From NCBI RefSeq assembly GCF_002114215.1, contig NZ_NCTE01000078.1, positions 1-36,990 on the forward strand: a stretch of 36,990 bases of DNA, read 5' to 3'. A program made the translations under genes and the position numbers. The notes below the pieces were generated by a model. That model saw only the letters and a list, made by a program, of their open reading frames with translations. It did not search any database and had not been told where the DNA came from. This document shows, piece by piece, positions 2,233 through 30,449 of the stretch; within the stretch, counting starts at the first letter, position 1; the number at the start of each line of letters is the position of its first letter. This DNA is from Streptomyces sp. 13-12-16. Its GTDB lineage: Bacteria; Actinomycetota; Actinomycetes; Streptomycetales; Streptomycetaceae.

Positions 2233-2257
2233 AACCCCAGGTCGTCGACCTGGGGTT
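2233..2257. terminator. Hairpin next to the outermost tRNA-Gly scar
   Basis: Perfect inverted repeat: AACCCCAGGT and ACCTGGGGTT around a 5-base loop. It lies 51 bases past the lipoprotein stop. It also lies on the 3' side of a decayed tRNA-Gly tail, in the same place as the hairpin beside the intact tRNA at 30344-30370. It probably descends from the tRNA terminator and now also ends the upstream operon. Confidence 0.65.
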
Positions 2258-2263
2258 CCATCG

Positions 2264-2309
2264 TGGAGCGGGTGCCGAGAACCGAACTCGCGCTCCCGGT
2301 CCGGGAAGC
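2264..2309 (-). repeat. Decayed tRNA-Gly 3' end (old attachment-site scar)
   Basis: 39 of 46 bases match the 3' part of the intact tRNA-Gly at 30376-30449, from the CCA end through the T arm into the anticodon loop. About 75 bases further on (2384-2401) is an 18-base string, CACCGCTGTCGACCGTGG, that recurs with one change at 10804-10821. There it is also about 77 bases from a tRNA-Gly relic. Matching spacing points to the same kind of attachment site. The rest of 2182-2549 shows no convincing gene. Confidence 0.65.
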
Positions 2310-8765: not shown

Positions 8766-8806
8766 GTGCCCCTGGACGAGGCTGGATCACCCTCGTCCAG
8801 GGGCAC
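8766..8806 (+). terminator. Rho-independent type terminator of the ABC operon
   Basis: Perfect 15-base arms, GTGCCCCTGGACGAG and CTCGTCCAGGGGCAC, around an 11-base loop. It starts 18 bases after the permease stop. There is no T-run, as is usual in Streptomyces. Confidence 0.8.
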
Positions 8807-9027
8807 ACCGTGCGGGAAAGCACGCGTGCGCGAGAACGGCGGCATGGAGATGCCGAGGAACGAGCGGGCTGAGGGCTCGCCTCCGGCTCATCTGTGTGAA
8901 GGTAAAGGTCAGCGCCATGCTGCGACGTGATGGGGGCGCCCTCGCAAGGCGTGCGTGCCCTCTGCGTGCCCCATCTCGGAGTGCGGGAGCACTCGCAAAC
9001 CGCAGCAACGAGACCCCTATGAAACAA

Positions 9028-9050: not shown

Positions 9051-9066
9051 TTGAAGAAGAGCGGGG

Positions 9067-9102
9067 GACGAGAATCGAACTCGCGCTCTCAGCTTGGGAA
9101 GC
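9067..9102 (-). repeat. tRNA-Gly 3' relic (second attachment-site scar)
   Basis: 36 bases identical to the T-arm to anticodon-loop part of the tRNA-Gly gene at 30376-30449. The sequence then diverges on the 5' side of the tRNA, so no tRNA can be formed. At 9206-9232 two close CTGGCACG copies occur, and at 9459-9466 and 9472-9479 two TGCTGTAC copies. Short direct repeats like these often flank integrase sites. The stretch 9103-9583 otherwise shows no clear gene. Confidence 0.75.
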
Positions 9103-9583
9103 CGAGGTGATCTACGGTCGATTGTGCGGCTGACCTGGGCGGGAGCGCTGCCGGCGTCCGATTGCGCGTGGGACCGGTATCCGGTGTTCCCCGTGGCTCC
9201 CCGCACGATCTGGCACGGGTCTGGCACGTCTGCGTTCTACGGACGGCAGAGCCGGACGCGTTGATGTCATCGTCGGTCGCCGTCGGCTGACCTTGGACGG
9301 CCCGGAGACGGCCCGGGAAGTTCGAGCCGGGACGTCGCGCCAGCTTGAGCGACGCTGACTACCTCGATGCGAACTACGGGCGGGACGGCCGTTGGGGTCT
9401 GCTGAGCTGGTCAGTGAGCTTCTGGGAGCCAGTGGCGACCGGTCGCAGTCGTCGTGGTTGCTGTACGTCGCTGCTGTACCGCAACTTCATGCCGCTTCGC
9501 AGCGATGCGCTTACAAGGCGGCACATTTCGATCTTGAGTGAGGGTATTCGAAGACTGCCCTCACTCATGGAGGTTCGAAGCCT

Positions 9584-9700
9584 GTGACCGTCTCTATCGC
9601 ATACAAGGGGCTTGAGTTGATGCCCACGTGGTTTGTCGCCACGACTGCGGTCTTGGCTGTGGTCGGGATCATCCTGGCCTACCGACGGAGACAACGATGA
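9584..9700 (+). CDS. Possible 38-residue membrane peptide
   Basis: Small ORF starting at GTG, with GGAGG about 10 bases upstream. The peptide has a short N-terminus, one hydrophobic helix (FVATTAVLAVVGIILAY, about residues 17-33) and a basic tail RRRQR. Codon use is less G+C-rich than in neighbours, which suggests a transferred origin. A hairpin with 10-base arms (9535-9544 and 9558-9567) ends just before the ribosome binding site and could affect translation. Single-helix peptides with a basic tail occur in phages, plasmids and type I toxins, but none of these is demonstrated. Low certainty. Confidence 0.4.
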   Translation: MTVSIAYKGLELMPTWFVATTAVLAVVGIILAYRRRQR

Positions 9701-9988
9701 TCAGCTCAGAGCTGACGAGCCGTCGCCCATTGGTTGATGGAGGCGGCTCGCCCCGGGCCGTGAGAGACGGATCGAGCTCATCCTTGTCAGGTCGATCGCA
9801 GGGGACCGTCGACATCGGTCAACCCGGCTCTGCGCATCGGCCGGTCTTGCGCTGAGGTCCGCCGCCGAGCACTGCTGTTCGTGCTTGTTGGTGTCAGCCG
9901 CTGATGCCGGCCGCCGCACGCGGTCTTTGCAGGGGGCGACGCTGTTGAGAGATTAGGGCTGTCCCTGGCCTGGTGGAGGATGGTGCTC

Positions 9989-10462
9989 ATGCGCGTTCTT
10001 TTCGACCCCCCTGAGCCTCGCCGCGTCCCGCCCGGCGAGTACCCAGTGTGGGACCAGGCTCTCGCCCTTCTGAACCGAGACCTGGCGGTGACGCTTCCCC
10101 GGCTGGAACCCCTGCAACTGCTGGCCCTCCCGTCCTACGATGCGGATGAGCCGGAGAACGTCTACGTCGCCATGGCCAACGGCGAGTGGCACGGCAATCA
10201 CCTGGACCCGAACTCGCAGGACTGCCTCGTCTCTGCGCTGGCGAGCGTTGCCGATGCAGCGCAGGAGACCGTCATGGAGGTTCTGTGGCAGGCGTGGCCC
10301 CTGTGCCCCGAGCATGGCCTGGGCATGCATCCGAGGGAGGATGCACAGGAGCGACTGTTCTGGTGGTGCGCGGGAGAACGGTTGCGTCGCGGCCCGGCTC
10401 ATGTCTACGCGGCCGTGGGTGCACTTGACGCTTTGGGAGCGTCGATCCGTACACGGTCTTGA
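9989..10462 (+). CDS. Unknown protein ending inside a tRNA-Ser remnant
   Basis: Predicted soluble protein of 157 residues that I do not recognise. The ATG at 9989 is preferred to the one at 9980 because GGAGGA sits 8 bases upstream. It has few Lys, several Trp and Pro, and acidic segments, with no membrane helix or signal peptide. The last residues (IRTRS) are encoded by the first bases of a tRNA-Ser 3' half (10453-10512). The natural C-terminus may therefore have been replaced when an element joined this tRNA fragment. The stretch 9703-9988 upstream shows no gene. Confidence 0.55.
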   Translation: MRVLFDPPEPRRVPPGEYPVWDQALALLNRDLAVTLPRLEPLQLLALPSYDADEPENVYVAMANGEWHGNHLDPNSQDCLVSALASVADAAQETVMEVLWQAWPLCPEHGLGMHPREDAQERLFWWCAGERLRRGPAHVYAAVGALDALGASIRTRS

Positions 10463-10512
10463 AAACCGTCGTGGCAGCGATGTCACCGTGGGTTCAAATC
10501 CCACCGCCTCCG
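10453..10512 (+). pseudogene. 3' half of a tRNA-Ser(TGA) gene
   Basis: Shows the anticodon stem ACGGT/ACCGT with loop CTTGAAA (anticodon TGA), a long class II variable stem (GTGGCA with TGTCAC), the T arm GTGGG-TTCAAAT-CCCAC, and the 3' acceptor strand CGCCTCC plus discriminator G. The matching 5' strand GGAGGCG and a D arm are absent upstream, where the tail of the preceding ORF lies instead. This is therefore not a functional tRNA but a fragment of the kind left at an integration site. Confidence 0.8.
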
Positions 10513-10529
10513 CGCGACGAGCAGTGAGA

Positions 10530-10564
10530 ACGGCCCCTGACCTGAGCAGCCGGTCGAGGGCCGT
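10530..10564 (+). terminator. Hairpin downstream of the tRNA-Ser remnant
   Basis: ACGGCCC at 10530 pairs with GGGCCGT ending at 10564, and an inner GACC/GGTC extends the stem. It probably came along as the terminator of the original tRNA-Ser gene. Confidence 0.5.
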
Positions 10565-10667
10565 TGTGCTGTGGAGCGCCCCTCTGGTCACCCGACAGGC
10601 CTTCTGGTACGAATCTGGCACGCGGCGAGTGATCGCAGAGCACAGCAAAAAGGCCCGGGTCTCTGAG

Positions 10668-10727
10668 CTGGGCCTTCTTCATGGAGCGGGTGACGAGAAT
10701 CGAACTCGCGCTCTCAGCTTGGGAAGC
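10668..10727 (-). repeat. attR-like 60-bp repeat (tRNA-Gly 3' end)
   Basis: Sixty bases identical to 30362-30421. They cover the right arm of the tRNA terminator, the CCA end, the acceptor 3' strand, the T arm and the 3' side of the anticodon arm. No tRNA 5' part is present. Together with the intact tRNA copy this forms the perfect direct repeat expected at the two ends of an integrated element. AGGGCACGC at 10835-10843 recurs at 30296-30304 near the other end and may be an integrase arm site. The stretch 10728-10979 has no gene. Confidence 0.88.
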
Positions 10728-27383: not shown

Positions 27384-27596
27384 ATGACTGACCGCCTTCT
27401 GACGGTGGCCGAAGCCGCCGAACTGCTCGGTACCGGCGAACGGTTCATCCGCCGCCTGATCGCCGAGCGTCGCATTCGCTACGTCAAGCTCGGCCGTCCC
27501 GTGCGCGTCCCCGAACGTGCCGTCACCGAGTACATCGAGGCGCGCACGGTCGAGCCGACCCGGCGCACCCGCACTCGGTACGGGAGGGCCGCCTGA
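27384..27596 (+). CDS. xis: Excisionase-like HTH_17 (MerR-fold) protein
   Basis: 70 residues. LLTVAEAAELLGTGERFIRR, then RIRYVKLGRPVRVPERAVTE: a single winged helix of the excisionase/helix-turn-helix type, ending in a basic tail. Its stop overlaps the integrase ATG by one base (TGATG), the standard xis-int arrangement of actinobacterial integrative elements. It should bend the attachment site and favour excision. Confidence 0.88.
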   Translation: MTDRLLTVAEAAELLGTGERFIRRLIAERRIRYVKLGRPVRVPERAVTEYIEARTVEPTRRTRTRYGRAA

Positions 27597-28750
27597 TGCC
27601 GACACGCAAGCCCCCGCGTCGTCGGGAGTTCGGCACCGTACGCAAGCTCCCGTCCGGTCGATGGCAGGCCCGCTACCTGGGCCCGGACGGGCAGCGCCAC
27701 AAGGCCCCCGAGACCTTCGACACGAAGACCGACGCGCAGGACTGGCTGAACCTGGTCCGCGCCGACATCGAGCGTGACCACTGGCGTGACCCGGACGCCG
27801 GCGCGATCAACTTCGAGAAGTACGCCCTCCGCTGGGTGGAGGAGCGCGGTCTGGCCCCGACCACGGTCGACCGCTACGACGGCCTGCTACGCCTGCACCT
27901 CCTGCCGGCCTTCGGCAGCAAGGACCTGGACGAAATCACACCGCCTTCCGTCCGCACCTGGCGAGCCGAGCGGCTCAAGGCAACGGGTGCCACGACGGTC
28001 GCCAAGTCGTACCGGCTGCTGAAGGCCATCCTGCAGACCGCGGTCGATGACGACCTCCTGCGGACCAACCCGTGCCGGATCAAGGGCGCCGGTCGGGAGG
28101 AAGCCGACGAGCGGCCGACCGCCACCGTGGAGCAGGTCTTCGACCTCGCCGACGCCATGGGTCCGCGCTGGCGCCTGATGGTCCTGCTCGGCGCTTTCGC
28201 CTCGCTCCGCCCCGAGGAACTGGCCGAGCTGCGCCGCCGCAGTGTCGATCTCGACGAATGCTCCCTGCGGATCACGCATGCGTCACCGGAGCTGACGAAC
28301 GGCAGGAGGGTCACCGGCGATCCCAAGTCACGAGCGGGCAAGCGCACCGTGTACCTGCCCGACTTCCTCCTGCCCGAGCTTCGTCGCCACGTGCAGTGGT
28401 TCGCCGAGAAGGAGCCGGACGGGCTCCTCTTCGTCGGGGAGAAGGGCGCCCCGTTCCGTCGCTCGACCTTCGGACGGAAGTGGCGCAAGGCCAGGGCGAA
28501 GGTGGGGCTGCCCGACAACTTCCGCTTCTACGACCTCCGGCACACCGGGAACACCCTTGCCGCCGACACCGGCGCCAAGCTGAAGGACCTCATGGTGCGC
28601 GCCGGCCAGTCCTCGGAGCGGGCCCAGCTCATCTACCAGCACTCGACGGCCAAGCATCAGCGGAGGCTGGCCCGGGGGATCGATGCCGAGGTGCGGGCAA
28701 GGCTCAGCGAAACACCACCAGGAGCGCGGGGAGGTGCTCGCGAGGCGTAA
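27596..28750 (+). CDS. int: Tyrosine-recombinase integrase
   Basis: Site-specific recombinase of 384 residues. It has an N-terminal arm-binding region (1-60), a SAM-like core-binding domain (about 70-165) and a catalytic domain (about 175-360). Catalytic candidates are Arg205 (SLRPEEL), Lys near 244-249, Arg315 in FYDLRHTGNT, and nucleophile Tyr347 in LIYQHS. Two positions that are often His are different: Tyr312 in YDLRH and Gln338 in AGQSS. This may be a normal subfamily trait. It presumably catalysed integration into the 3' end of tRNA-Gly(CCC). The distance of 1.6 kb to the tRNA is explained by the two-gene toxin-antitoxin-like module in between. Confidence 0.93.
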   Translation: MPTRKPPRRREFGTVRKLPSGRWQARYLGPDGQRHKAPETFDTKTDAQDWLNLVRADIERDHWRDPDAGAINFEKYALRWVEERGLAPTTVDRYDGLLRLHLLPAFGSKDLDEITPPSVRTWRAERLKATGATTVAKSYRLLKAILQTAVDDDLLRTNPCRIKGAGREEADERPTATVEQVFDLADAMGPRWRLMVLLGAFASLRPEELAELRRRSVDLDECSLRITHASPELTNGRRVTGDPKSRAGKRTVYLPDFLLPELRRHVQWFAEKEPDGLLFVGEKGAPFRRSTFGRKWRKARAKVGLPDNFRFYDLRHTGNTLAADTGAKLKDLMVRAGQSSERAQLIYQHSTAKHQRRLARGIDAEVRARLSETPPGARGGAREA

Positions 28751-30370: not shown

Positions 30371-30421
30371 CTTCATGGAGCGGGTGACGAGAATCGAACT
30401 CGCGCTCTCAGCTTGGGAAGC
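30362..30421 (-). repeat. attL-like 60-bp repeat inside tRNA-Gly
   Basis: The copy of the 60-base direct repeat (identical to 10668-10727) that lies in the functional tRNA gene. Identity stops inside the anticodon arm, so the tRNA 5' half is chromosomal while its 3' half is shared with the element. That is the normal way such elements keep their target gene working. Confidence 0.88.
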
Positions 30422-30449
30422 TGATGTTCTACCATTAAACTACACCCGC
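30376..30449 (-). tRNA. tRNA-Gly(CCC)
   Basis: Complete 74-base tRNA with the CCA end encoded. The acceptor stem is GCGGGTG/CACCCGC, the anticodon stem TCAGC/GCTGA with loop TTCCCAA (anticodon CCC, reading GGG), and the T arm GCGAG-TTCGATT-CTCGT. It is the intact target gene of the integrated element. Confidence 0.96.

What the first reader, a model, noticed from the sequence alone, without database searches (positions are those of the whole stretch)
9989..10512. Half tRNA-Ser(TGA) fused to the end of an ORF
The 3' half of a class II tRNA lacks its 5' half, and the C-terminus of an unknown 157-residue protein is encoded by the tRNA sequence. This implies a second, different element that used tRNA-Ser, now nested among tRNA-Gly scars.
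Basis: seen in the sequence. Interest (0 to 1): 0.5.

Follow-up and report, generated by a model that had tools for sequence, protein, structure and literature searches.

The report
Protein gene ending in tRNA half
A small Streptomyces gene of unknown function stops inside the anticodon of a broken serine tRNA; the same join recurs in other Streptomyces species and is best read as an old landing-site scar of mobile DNA that the gene has kept as its ending.

Summary
Window 10453-10512 is the 3' half of tRNA-Ser(TGA), without a 5' half, and the stop codon of ORF 9980-10462 is the anticodon TGA. An intact tRNA-Ser(TGA) lies on another contig of the draft genome (92% over 113 bp, terminator included). 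Only two codons and the stop are tRNA sequence. The join is not local: sixteen Streptomyces loci, window included, share this C-terminus or a close variant and the stop. Their ORF sides form one clade; the tRNA sides are of several types that do not follow the ORF tree. The ORF is under purifying selection (median dN/dS 0.25, 12 of 16 copies). In 14 of 14 half tRNA-Ser copies without the ORF, chosen for holding the loop, tRNA identity starts 0-5 nt before the anticodon loop, as expected for an integrase crossover there. In the 6 genomes with both on one contig, the ORF junction lies at least 98.7 kb from intact tRNA-Ser; 9 of 16 junctions face another tRNA or tRNA half (Thr, Gly, Arg, Ile). 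Best reading: a retired tRNA-Ser attachment junction carried inside re-targeted, decaying integrative elements. Known principle, new variant.

The parts
9980..10462 (+). ORF of 160 aa (157 from ATG 9989), unknown function; stop codon inside the half tRNA
   Evidence: no Pfam, PHROG or significant NCBIfam match; homologs in 55 of 295 genomes of the genus, own included; purifying selection
10453..10512 (+). 3' half of tRNA-Ser(TGA), from the 5' strand of the anticodon stem to the discriminator base
10460..10462 (+). anticodon TGA, used as the ORF's stop codon
10530..10565 (+). terminator-like hairpin of the tRNA-Ser 3' flank, carried with the half (read by eye)
   Evidence: same kind of hairpin behind the intact tRNA-Ser on C1280
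10605..10622 (+). TGGTACGNNNNTGGCACG, a putative integrase arm-type site 145 nt behind the ORF end
   Evidence: sites at 145-152 nt in 7 of 18 loci, five of them within 1 mismatch and two with 2; by itself the motif is not rarer than chance in the window (9 found, 5.9 expected)
9777..9790 (-). possible remnant of a second att core: 13 of 14 bases of the tRNA-Ile(GAT) anticodon stem-loop, where L092 and L094 carry longer tRNA-Ile 3' halves
   Evidence: 2 of 500 shuffles for the window alone; 0 of 500 for L092 and L094
9791..9979 (+). conserved stretch between the tRNA-Ile remnant and the ORF (putative P arm)
   Evidence: shared with L092 and L094 to -682 and with G207 to -644 from the ORF end
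10684..10727 (-). 3' half of tRNA-Gly(CCC), convergent with the half tRNA-Ser, 171 bp between them
9059..9102 (-). 3' half of tRNA-Gly(CCC), second scar
9211..9228 (+). TGGCACGGGTCTGGCACG, putative arm-type site beside the tRNA-Gly scar
   Evidence: 0 mismatches
30376..30449 (-). intact tRNA-Gly(CCC), head of the array of scars
27596..28750 (+). tyrosine integrase gene of the island behind tRNA-Gly

Best explanation
The junction is a relic attachment site. A tyrosine integrase of an integrative element recombined with tRNA-Ser(TGA) in the anticodon loop; the element's arm, ending in this small ORF, was joined to the displaced host 3' half, and the anticodon TGA became the ORF's stop codon. This part is well supported. 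The joined piece was then carried inside elements that integrate at other tRNA genes (Thr, Gly, Arg, Ile), probably after they had gained a new integrase and attachment site on the other side of the ORF, and so lies there as a retired attP/attR. This part is inferred. The tRNA half decays in some lineages, while the ORF and its borrowed stop codon are kept by selection on the protein. In the window the piece ended up between two tRNA-Gly scars with no integrase recognised between them.
For: Crossover point: in 14 of 14 half tRNA-Ser copies without the ORF, identity to the tRNA starts 0-5 nt before the anticodon loop; 5 nt in the window. In-place copies: G455, G457 and G458 carry such halves 5.9, 18.5 and 8.9 kb downstream of their intact tRNA-Ser, as island ends do. 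One ORF side, several tRNA sides: 17 rows (the 16 fused and L111) form one clade (100/100) apart from two unfused homologs; the tRNA type, my own hand classing of 12 rows, needs 6 changes on that tree where 2 is the minimum, no fewer than shuffled labels. Not at tRNA-Ser: 98.7 kb to 1.28 Mb away in G207, G226, G318, G374, G380 and 377 kb in G458. Other tRNAs: of 19 loci scanned, 11 (9 of the 16 fused) have a convergent tRNA T-arm within 5 kb downstream, and none has one in the ORF's direction other than the half tRNA-Ser itself. Upstream end: 4 of 8 loci tested carry an outward-facing 3' half of tRNA-Thr, tRNA-Arg or tRNA-Ile (0 of 500 shuffles). In L088 the core reads CTCGTAAAG where tRNA-Thr has CTTGTAAAG and tRNA-Arg CTCCTAAAG. 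Integrase remnants, by eye, between the junction and the next tRNA in L091, L111, L086. The half is cut short in L086 and L105 (41 and 39 nt) and only a stub in L088 and L093 (by eye), with the stop kept. Selection: differences at codon positions 508/447/1185, median dN/dS 0.25 over 66 pairs.
Against: No locus shows the ORF junction at an intact tRNA-Ser, so its use as a live tRNA-Ser attachment site is not seen; in most drafts the two are on different contigs and the distance is open. No complete element with this ORF and an intact integrase was found. The 14 halves were picked by a motif that spans the loop, so breaks further 3' could not appear; one copy without the motif (L169) was left out, and some of the 14 have similar arms and are not independent. 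Second tRNA-Ser matches far from the first also occur without the ORF in G009 (2.3 Mb) and G082 (0.5 Mb), not read further, so a far-off half is not special to the ORF. Upstream halves: the window's own is 14 nt (2 of 500), L087 and L089 are weak (12 and 9 of 500), L095 has none; three tRNAs were tried on each, and related tRNAs cross-match (L105 to Ile, 1 of 500). Only 3 of 16 inner branches of the ORF tree are well supported, and these force only 1 change per tRNA type. Putative arm sites within 1 mismatch in 7 of 18 loci; none with this spacing at 3 mismatches or fewer in L089, L090, L091, L093, L097, L105, G207, G226. The host's own tRNA-Ser is the best match of its half in 0 of 13 genomes (window rank 2 of 19), so where each half was picked up is unknown. 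One pair of near-identical copies has dN/dS 1.2.
Confidence: 0.55

Rival explanations
1. A local event: a second element, specific for tRNA-Ser, landed in or near the tRNA-Gly array of this strain or a close ancestor and left its attR.
For: The window's half and its flank are of the CGCCTCC type of its own clade (best match G009 93.6%, own 90.9%), so the tRNA side is from a close relative.
Against: The same ORF side of the junction is in 15 further loci, several beside other tRNAs; G207 carries the module with tRNA-Gly scars too.
Confidence: 0.12
2. The ORF is a small gene cassette: a 0.66-kb unit with anticodon-loop recombination sites for two different tRNAs at its two ends, moved as a unit between tRNA genes by integrases, somewhat like an integron cassette.
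For: Among the 12 stretches compared, the ORF is the gene that the loci share, apart from L071 and L074, which share more; it is bounded at -642 to -671 by outward-facing tRNA halves in 4 of 8 loci and at its end by the half tRNA-Ser; backgrounds differ.
Against: No circular form or empty site was seen; integrase remnants and further sequence lie between the unit and the next tRNA in some loci, which fits a decayed element as well.
Confidence: 0.1
3. Illegitimate duplication of the tRNA-Ser 3' end with its terminator behind the ORF, giving it a stop codon and a terminator; no integrase involved.
For: The terminator-like hairpin is carried with the half.
Against: Break at the anticodon loop, shared with 14 halves that lack the ORF; several tRNA types behind one ORF side.
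Confidence: 0.06
4. A functional RNA: a split or trans-spliced tRNA-Ser, or a tRNA-derived small RNA.
For: The T arm, variable arm and acceptor strand are intact in the window; the tRNA-Sec model matches weakly (31.5 bits, cut-off 47).
Against: An intact tRNA-Ser(TGA) is present; the half is cut to 41 nt or less in 4 of 16 related loci while the ORF stop stays.
Confidence: 0.02

Closest known systems
Displaced 3' tDNA fragments of genomic islands, anticodon-loop class (Islander; PMC4383910, passages read)
   Same: A tRNA 3' fragment broken in the anticodon loop marks the end of an integrated island; its table gives 2083 islands with an anticodon-centred site of 3919, and 626 islands that overlap a RefSeq CDS, 276 of these called hypothetical.
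   Different: Here fragment and intact tRNA are not seen as the two ends of one island; the fragment travels with a conserved ORF to other tRNA genes.
Accretion of AICEs at one tRNA in Streptomyces, and one AICE family at different sites with different integrases (PMC9513070, passages read)
   Same: Successive elements and remnants stacked at one tRNA, as with the tRNA-Gly halves here; re-targeting through a different integrase.
   Different: That paper describes AICEs and their remnants; here a 0.66-kb piece with two different tRNA cores is what the loci share.
tRNA remnants as integration sites for AICEs (PMC3218068, section 6 read)
   Same: Two AICEs sit at att sequences without a detected tRNA gene; a displaced half could serve as a landing site.
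   Different: No new insertion into the window's half tRNA-Ser is seen.
Cis-mobilizable elements (CIMEs): att-flanked pieces without integrase (recalled, from no call)
   Same: The 1.6-kb interval between the two tRNA-Gly halves has att-like ends and no recognised integrase.
   Different: It also holds internal cores of tRNA-Ser and, weakly, tRNA-Ile.

Membership tests
Displaced tRNA 3' fragment (att scar) | 3' part of a tRNA, broken at a known crossover sub-site | tested here: met
   starts 5 nt before the anticodon loop; 14 of 14 other halves, picked by a motif spanning the loop, start 0-5 nt before it
Displaced tRNA 3' fragment (att scar) | intact cognate tRNA in the same genome | tested here: met
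   C1280:2424-2511
Displaced tRNA 3' fragment (att scar) | fragment downstream of the intact tRNA, same orientation, island between | tested here: inconclusive
   the two lie on different contigs of the draft; in the 6 genomes with the same junction and the intact gene on one contig they are 98.7 kb or more apart
Integrated element specific for tRNA-Ser | integrase gene next to the attachment site | tested here: not met
   of 33 window ORF translations scanned against Pfam the only integrase is 27596-28750, behind tRNA-Gly; not every short ORF was scanned
CIME-like piece at tRNA-Gly | flanked by direct repeats of one tRNA end, no integrase inside | tested here: met
   halves 9059-9102 and 10684-10727, 98% alike; no integrase match in the five ORF translations scanned that overlap 9103-10683
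CIME-like piece at tRNA-Gly | can be excised by a related element's integrase | not testable with these tools
   needs an experiment
Split or permuted tRNA gene | 5' half elsewhere without an intact copy | tested here: not met
   intact gene present

The most novel reading that the evidence does not exclude
A protein-coding gene that is itself a tRNA-to-tRNA cassette: a 0.66-kb unit whose two ends are anticodon-loop crossover sites of different tRNA genes (Ser at its stop codon; Thr, Arg or Ile at the other end), moved between tRNA genes by the integrases of passing elements, with a tRNA anticodon fixed as its stop codon.
Probability: 0.1. Interest if true: 0.65.

Novelty: new variant of a known kind. 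Interest (0 to 1): 0.38.

Why it matters
It shows how an attachment scar can become part of a gene and be kept by selection, and it gives a marker to follow how integrative elements in Streptomyces change their tRNA targets: one conserved arm with several tRNA halves behind it. It also warns that a tRNA fragment far from its tRNA need not mean a local insertion.

Tried and rejected
Function of the ORF: no match in Pfam or PHROGs; one NCBIfam line at E 0.33 is noise; none in phage records or viral contigs; two large plasmids, of Streptomyces nigrescens and [Kitasatospora] papulosa, hold a homolog. AlphaFold2 model from 17 sequences, mean pLDDT 77; best PDB match E 0.11, TM 0.25, so no fold assignment.

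A pairing 5' acceptor strand before the half (GGGAGCG at 10435) was considered, as the tRNA-Sec match uses it; in the loci with an ACCCACC acceptor the same stretch does not pair (read by eye), so I take it as chance.

Origin of each half from its own host: not supported in general (own best in 0 of 13). Arm-type motif: 9 matches in the window against 5.9 expected, so it is evidence only by position; its controls are nearly empty for L086 and L087 (3 stretches each) and not rare in L095 (17 of 314).

Not-in-print check: searches in the open PMC library listed no report of this ORF/half tRNA-Ser junction; I judged by listings, opened four of the papers, and subscription journals are mostly not held there.

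Dropped rows: 12 of 16 fused ORFs were used (L093, L097 and G226 end 3 nt later than my frame, L105 has an interrupted frame), 12 of 19 rows bear a tRNA type; L111 joins the half to an ORF cut at about codon 132 and is not counted among the 16; L098, whose end looks like a further decayed copy, is not counted either.

Full report
What is there. The window lies in a draft genome of 8.7 Mb in 1511 contigs. I take the genus as Streptomyces: genomes given as of its own genus match named Streptomyces records in contig length. At 10453-10512 (+) stands the 3' half of tRNA-Ser(TGA): anticodon stem, loop, long variable arm, T arm and acceptor strand, followed by a terminator-like hairpin to 10565. The intact gene is on contig C1280, 2424-2511(-). 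The two match over 113 bp at 92%, starting at 10453. To the left lies ORF 9980-10462; its stop TGA is the anticodon. Only CGG TCT TGA of the ORF is tRNA sequence, so the protein owes its last two residues and its stop to the tRNA, not more.

Surroundings. The ORF and half lie between two 3' halves of tRNA-Gly(CCC), 9059-9102 and 10684-10727, which are 98% alike; the intact tRNA-Gly is at 30376-30449(-), with a tyrosine integrase at 27596-28750. A weaker copy matches at 2235-2309. Such stacking of insertions at one tRNA is known in Streptomyces as accretion (PMC9513070, passages read).

The junction is not local. The ORF has homologs in 55 of 295 genomes of the genus, own included; of 30 loci read from that search 5 carry a half tRNA-Ser. 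Of 24 loci from named records, 11 reach the fused end; the others have other C-termini, several of them basic ones such as VRPHRPNRKRRR. In all, sixteen loci, window included, share the ending GALDALGASIRTRS or a close variant and the TGA. Twelve of these keep a half tRNA-Ser of about 49 nt or more: window, L087, L089, L090 (S. litmocidini), L091 (S. exfoliatus), L092, L094, L095, L096, L097 (acceptor end lost), G207, G226. L086 and L105 keep 41 and 39 nt, L088 and L093 only a stub (by eye). A further half, in L111, is joined to a shorter ORF. A 31-nt pattern over the join, 3 mismatches allowed, occurs in 6 of 392 genomes, own included.

Why a recombination site. In 14 of 14 half tRNA-Ser copies without the ORF, identity to the tRNA begins 0-5 nt before the anticodon loop. 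These were picked by a motif that spans the loop, so the test shows where identity ends on the 5' side, not that no half breaks further 3'; some of the 14 have similar arms. Such halves sit 5.9, 18.5 and 8.9 kb behind the intact tRNA-Ser in G455, G457 and G458, as island ends do. The anticodon loop is a standard crossover site (2083 of 3919 islands; PMC4383910). Behind the one ORF side stand tRNA halves of several types, by acceptor and variable arm; on the ORF tree the types need 6 changes, no fewer than shuffled labels, though few branches are well supported. The window's half is of its own clade's type.

Where the junction lies. In the 6 genomes with both on one contig it is 98.7 kb to 1.28 Mb from the intact tRNA-Ser; in the other drafts searched they are on different contigs. 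Far-off second matches also occur without the ORF, in G009 and G082 (not read further). Of 19 loci scanned, 11 have a convergent tRNA T-arm within 5 kb behind the ORF and none has one in the ORF's own direction apart from the half itself: Thr in five, Gly in two, Arg or Arg-like in two, Ala and Ile in one each; 9 of the 16 fused loci are among the 11. Some contigs end early and the scan asks for a perfect T stem, so misses count little. Integrase remnants lie in that gap in L091, L111 and L086 (by eye). At the other end of the ORF unit, 642-671 nt before the ORF end, 4 of 8 loci tested carry an outward-facing 3' half of a different tRNA: Thr in L088 (42 of 43 bases), Arg in L105, Ile in L092 and L094 (0 of 500 shuffles each); the window keeps 14 nt of Ile (13 alike, 2 of 500); L087 and L089 have only weak Arg cores and L095 none. 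In L105 the unit lies between the tRNA-Arg(CCT) gene and its half, in L088 between two tRNA-Thr halves.

Reading. The simplest account is an element arm with this ORF that once recombined at tRNA-Ser and later travelled in elements with new targets, its tRNA-Ser core left inside as a retired site. The first step is well supported; the re-targeting is inferred. The ORF stays open in 15 of 16 copies and differs mostly at third positions (508/447/1185; median dN/dS 0.25 over 12 copies). All 12 bear the fused end, so the anticodon-derived stop belongs to a selected gene, while the tRNA half is cut short or lost in four loci.

Limits. No live element was found; the ORF's function is unknown; the tree rests on 447 columns. 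Of four papers I read passages, and of one of them a section.

Noticed in passing
window 8954-8971 (-): A perfect GGGCACGNNNNGGGCACG site about 90 nt beyond the tRNA-Gly half at 9059, on its downstream side, as if one more element had stood there.
   Followed up: no
window 2235-2309: A weak copy (76-80%) of the tRNA-Gly 3' end and terminator, perhaps an older scar of the same array.
   Followed up: no
window 8766-8806: Strong inverted repeat, 19-nt arms at 95%, 3-nt loop, behind the ABC permease gene; probably its terminator.
   Followed up: no
G000:C1280 (L012) 2299-2320: Behind the intact tRNA-Ser lies an arm-like CGGGCACGGCTGGGGCACGG (by eye), so an element may have been at this tRNA too; I did not search the rest of the contig for an integrase.
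   Followed up: no
L105 8700-9410: Between the decayed half tRNA-Ser and tRNA-Arg(CCT) lie two short genes that look like a VapBC-type toxin-antitoxin pair (by eye).
   Followed up: no
G226:C1:5079489-5079524 (L056): A 5' half of tRNA-Ser, 94% over 36 nt, 2 kb upstream of the intact gene; perhaps an insertion that displaced the 5' side.
   Followed up: no
G454 (S. olivochromogenes), loci L160, L166, L171, L175: Four half tRNA-Ser copies in one genome, only one of them (L160) with the ORF.
   Followed up: partly
L088 7780-7822: tRNA-Thr half whose loop reads CTCGTAAAG, between tRNA-Thr CTTGTAAAG and tRNA-Arg CTCCTAAAG; the same arm precedes an Arg core in L105 and weak Arg cores in L087 and L089, as if one arm had served two tRNAs.
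   Followed up: partly
G458:C1:7789200-7789249 (L169): A tRNA-Ser 3' match that begins beyond the anticodon loop (query 39-88); not tested for its break point.
   Followed up: no
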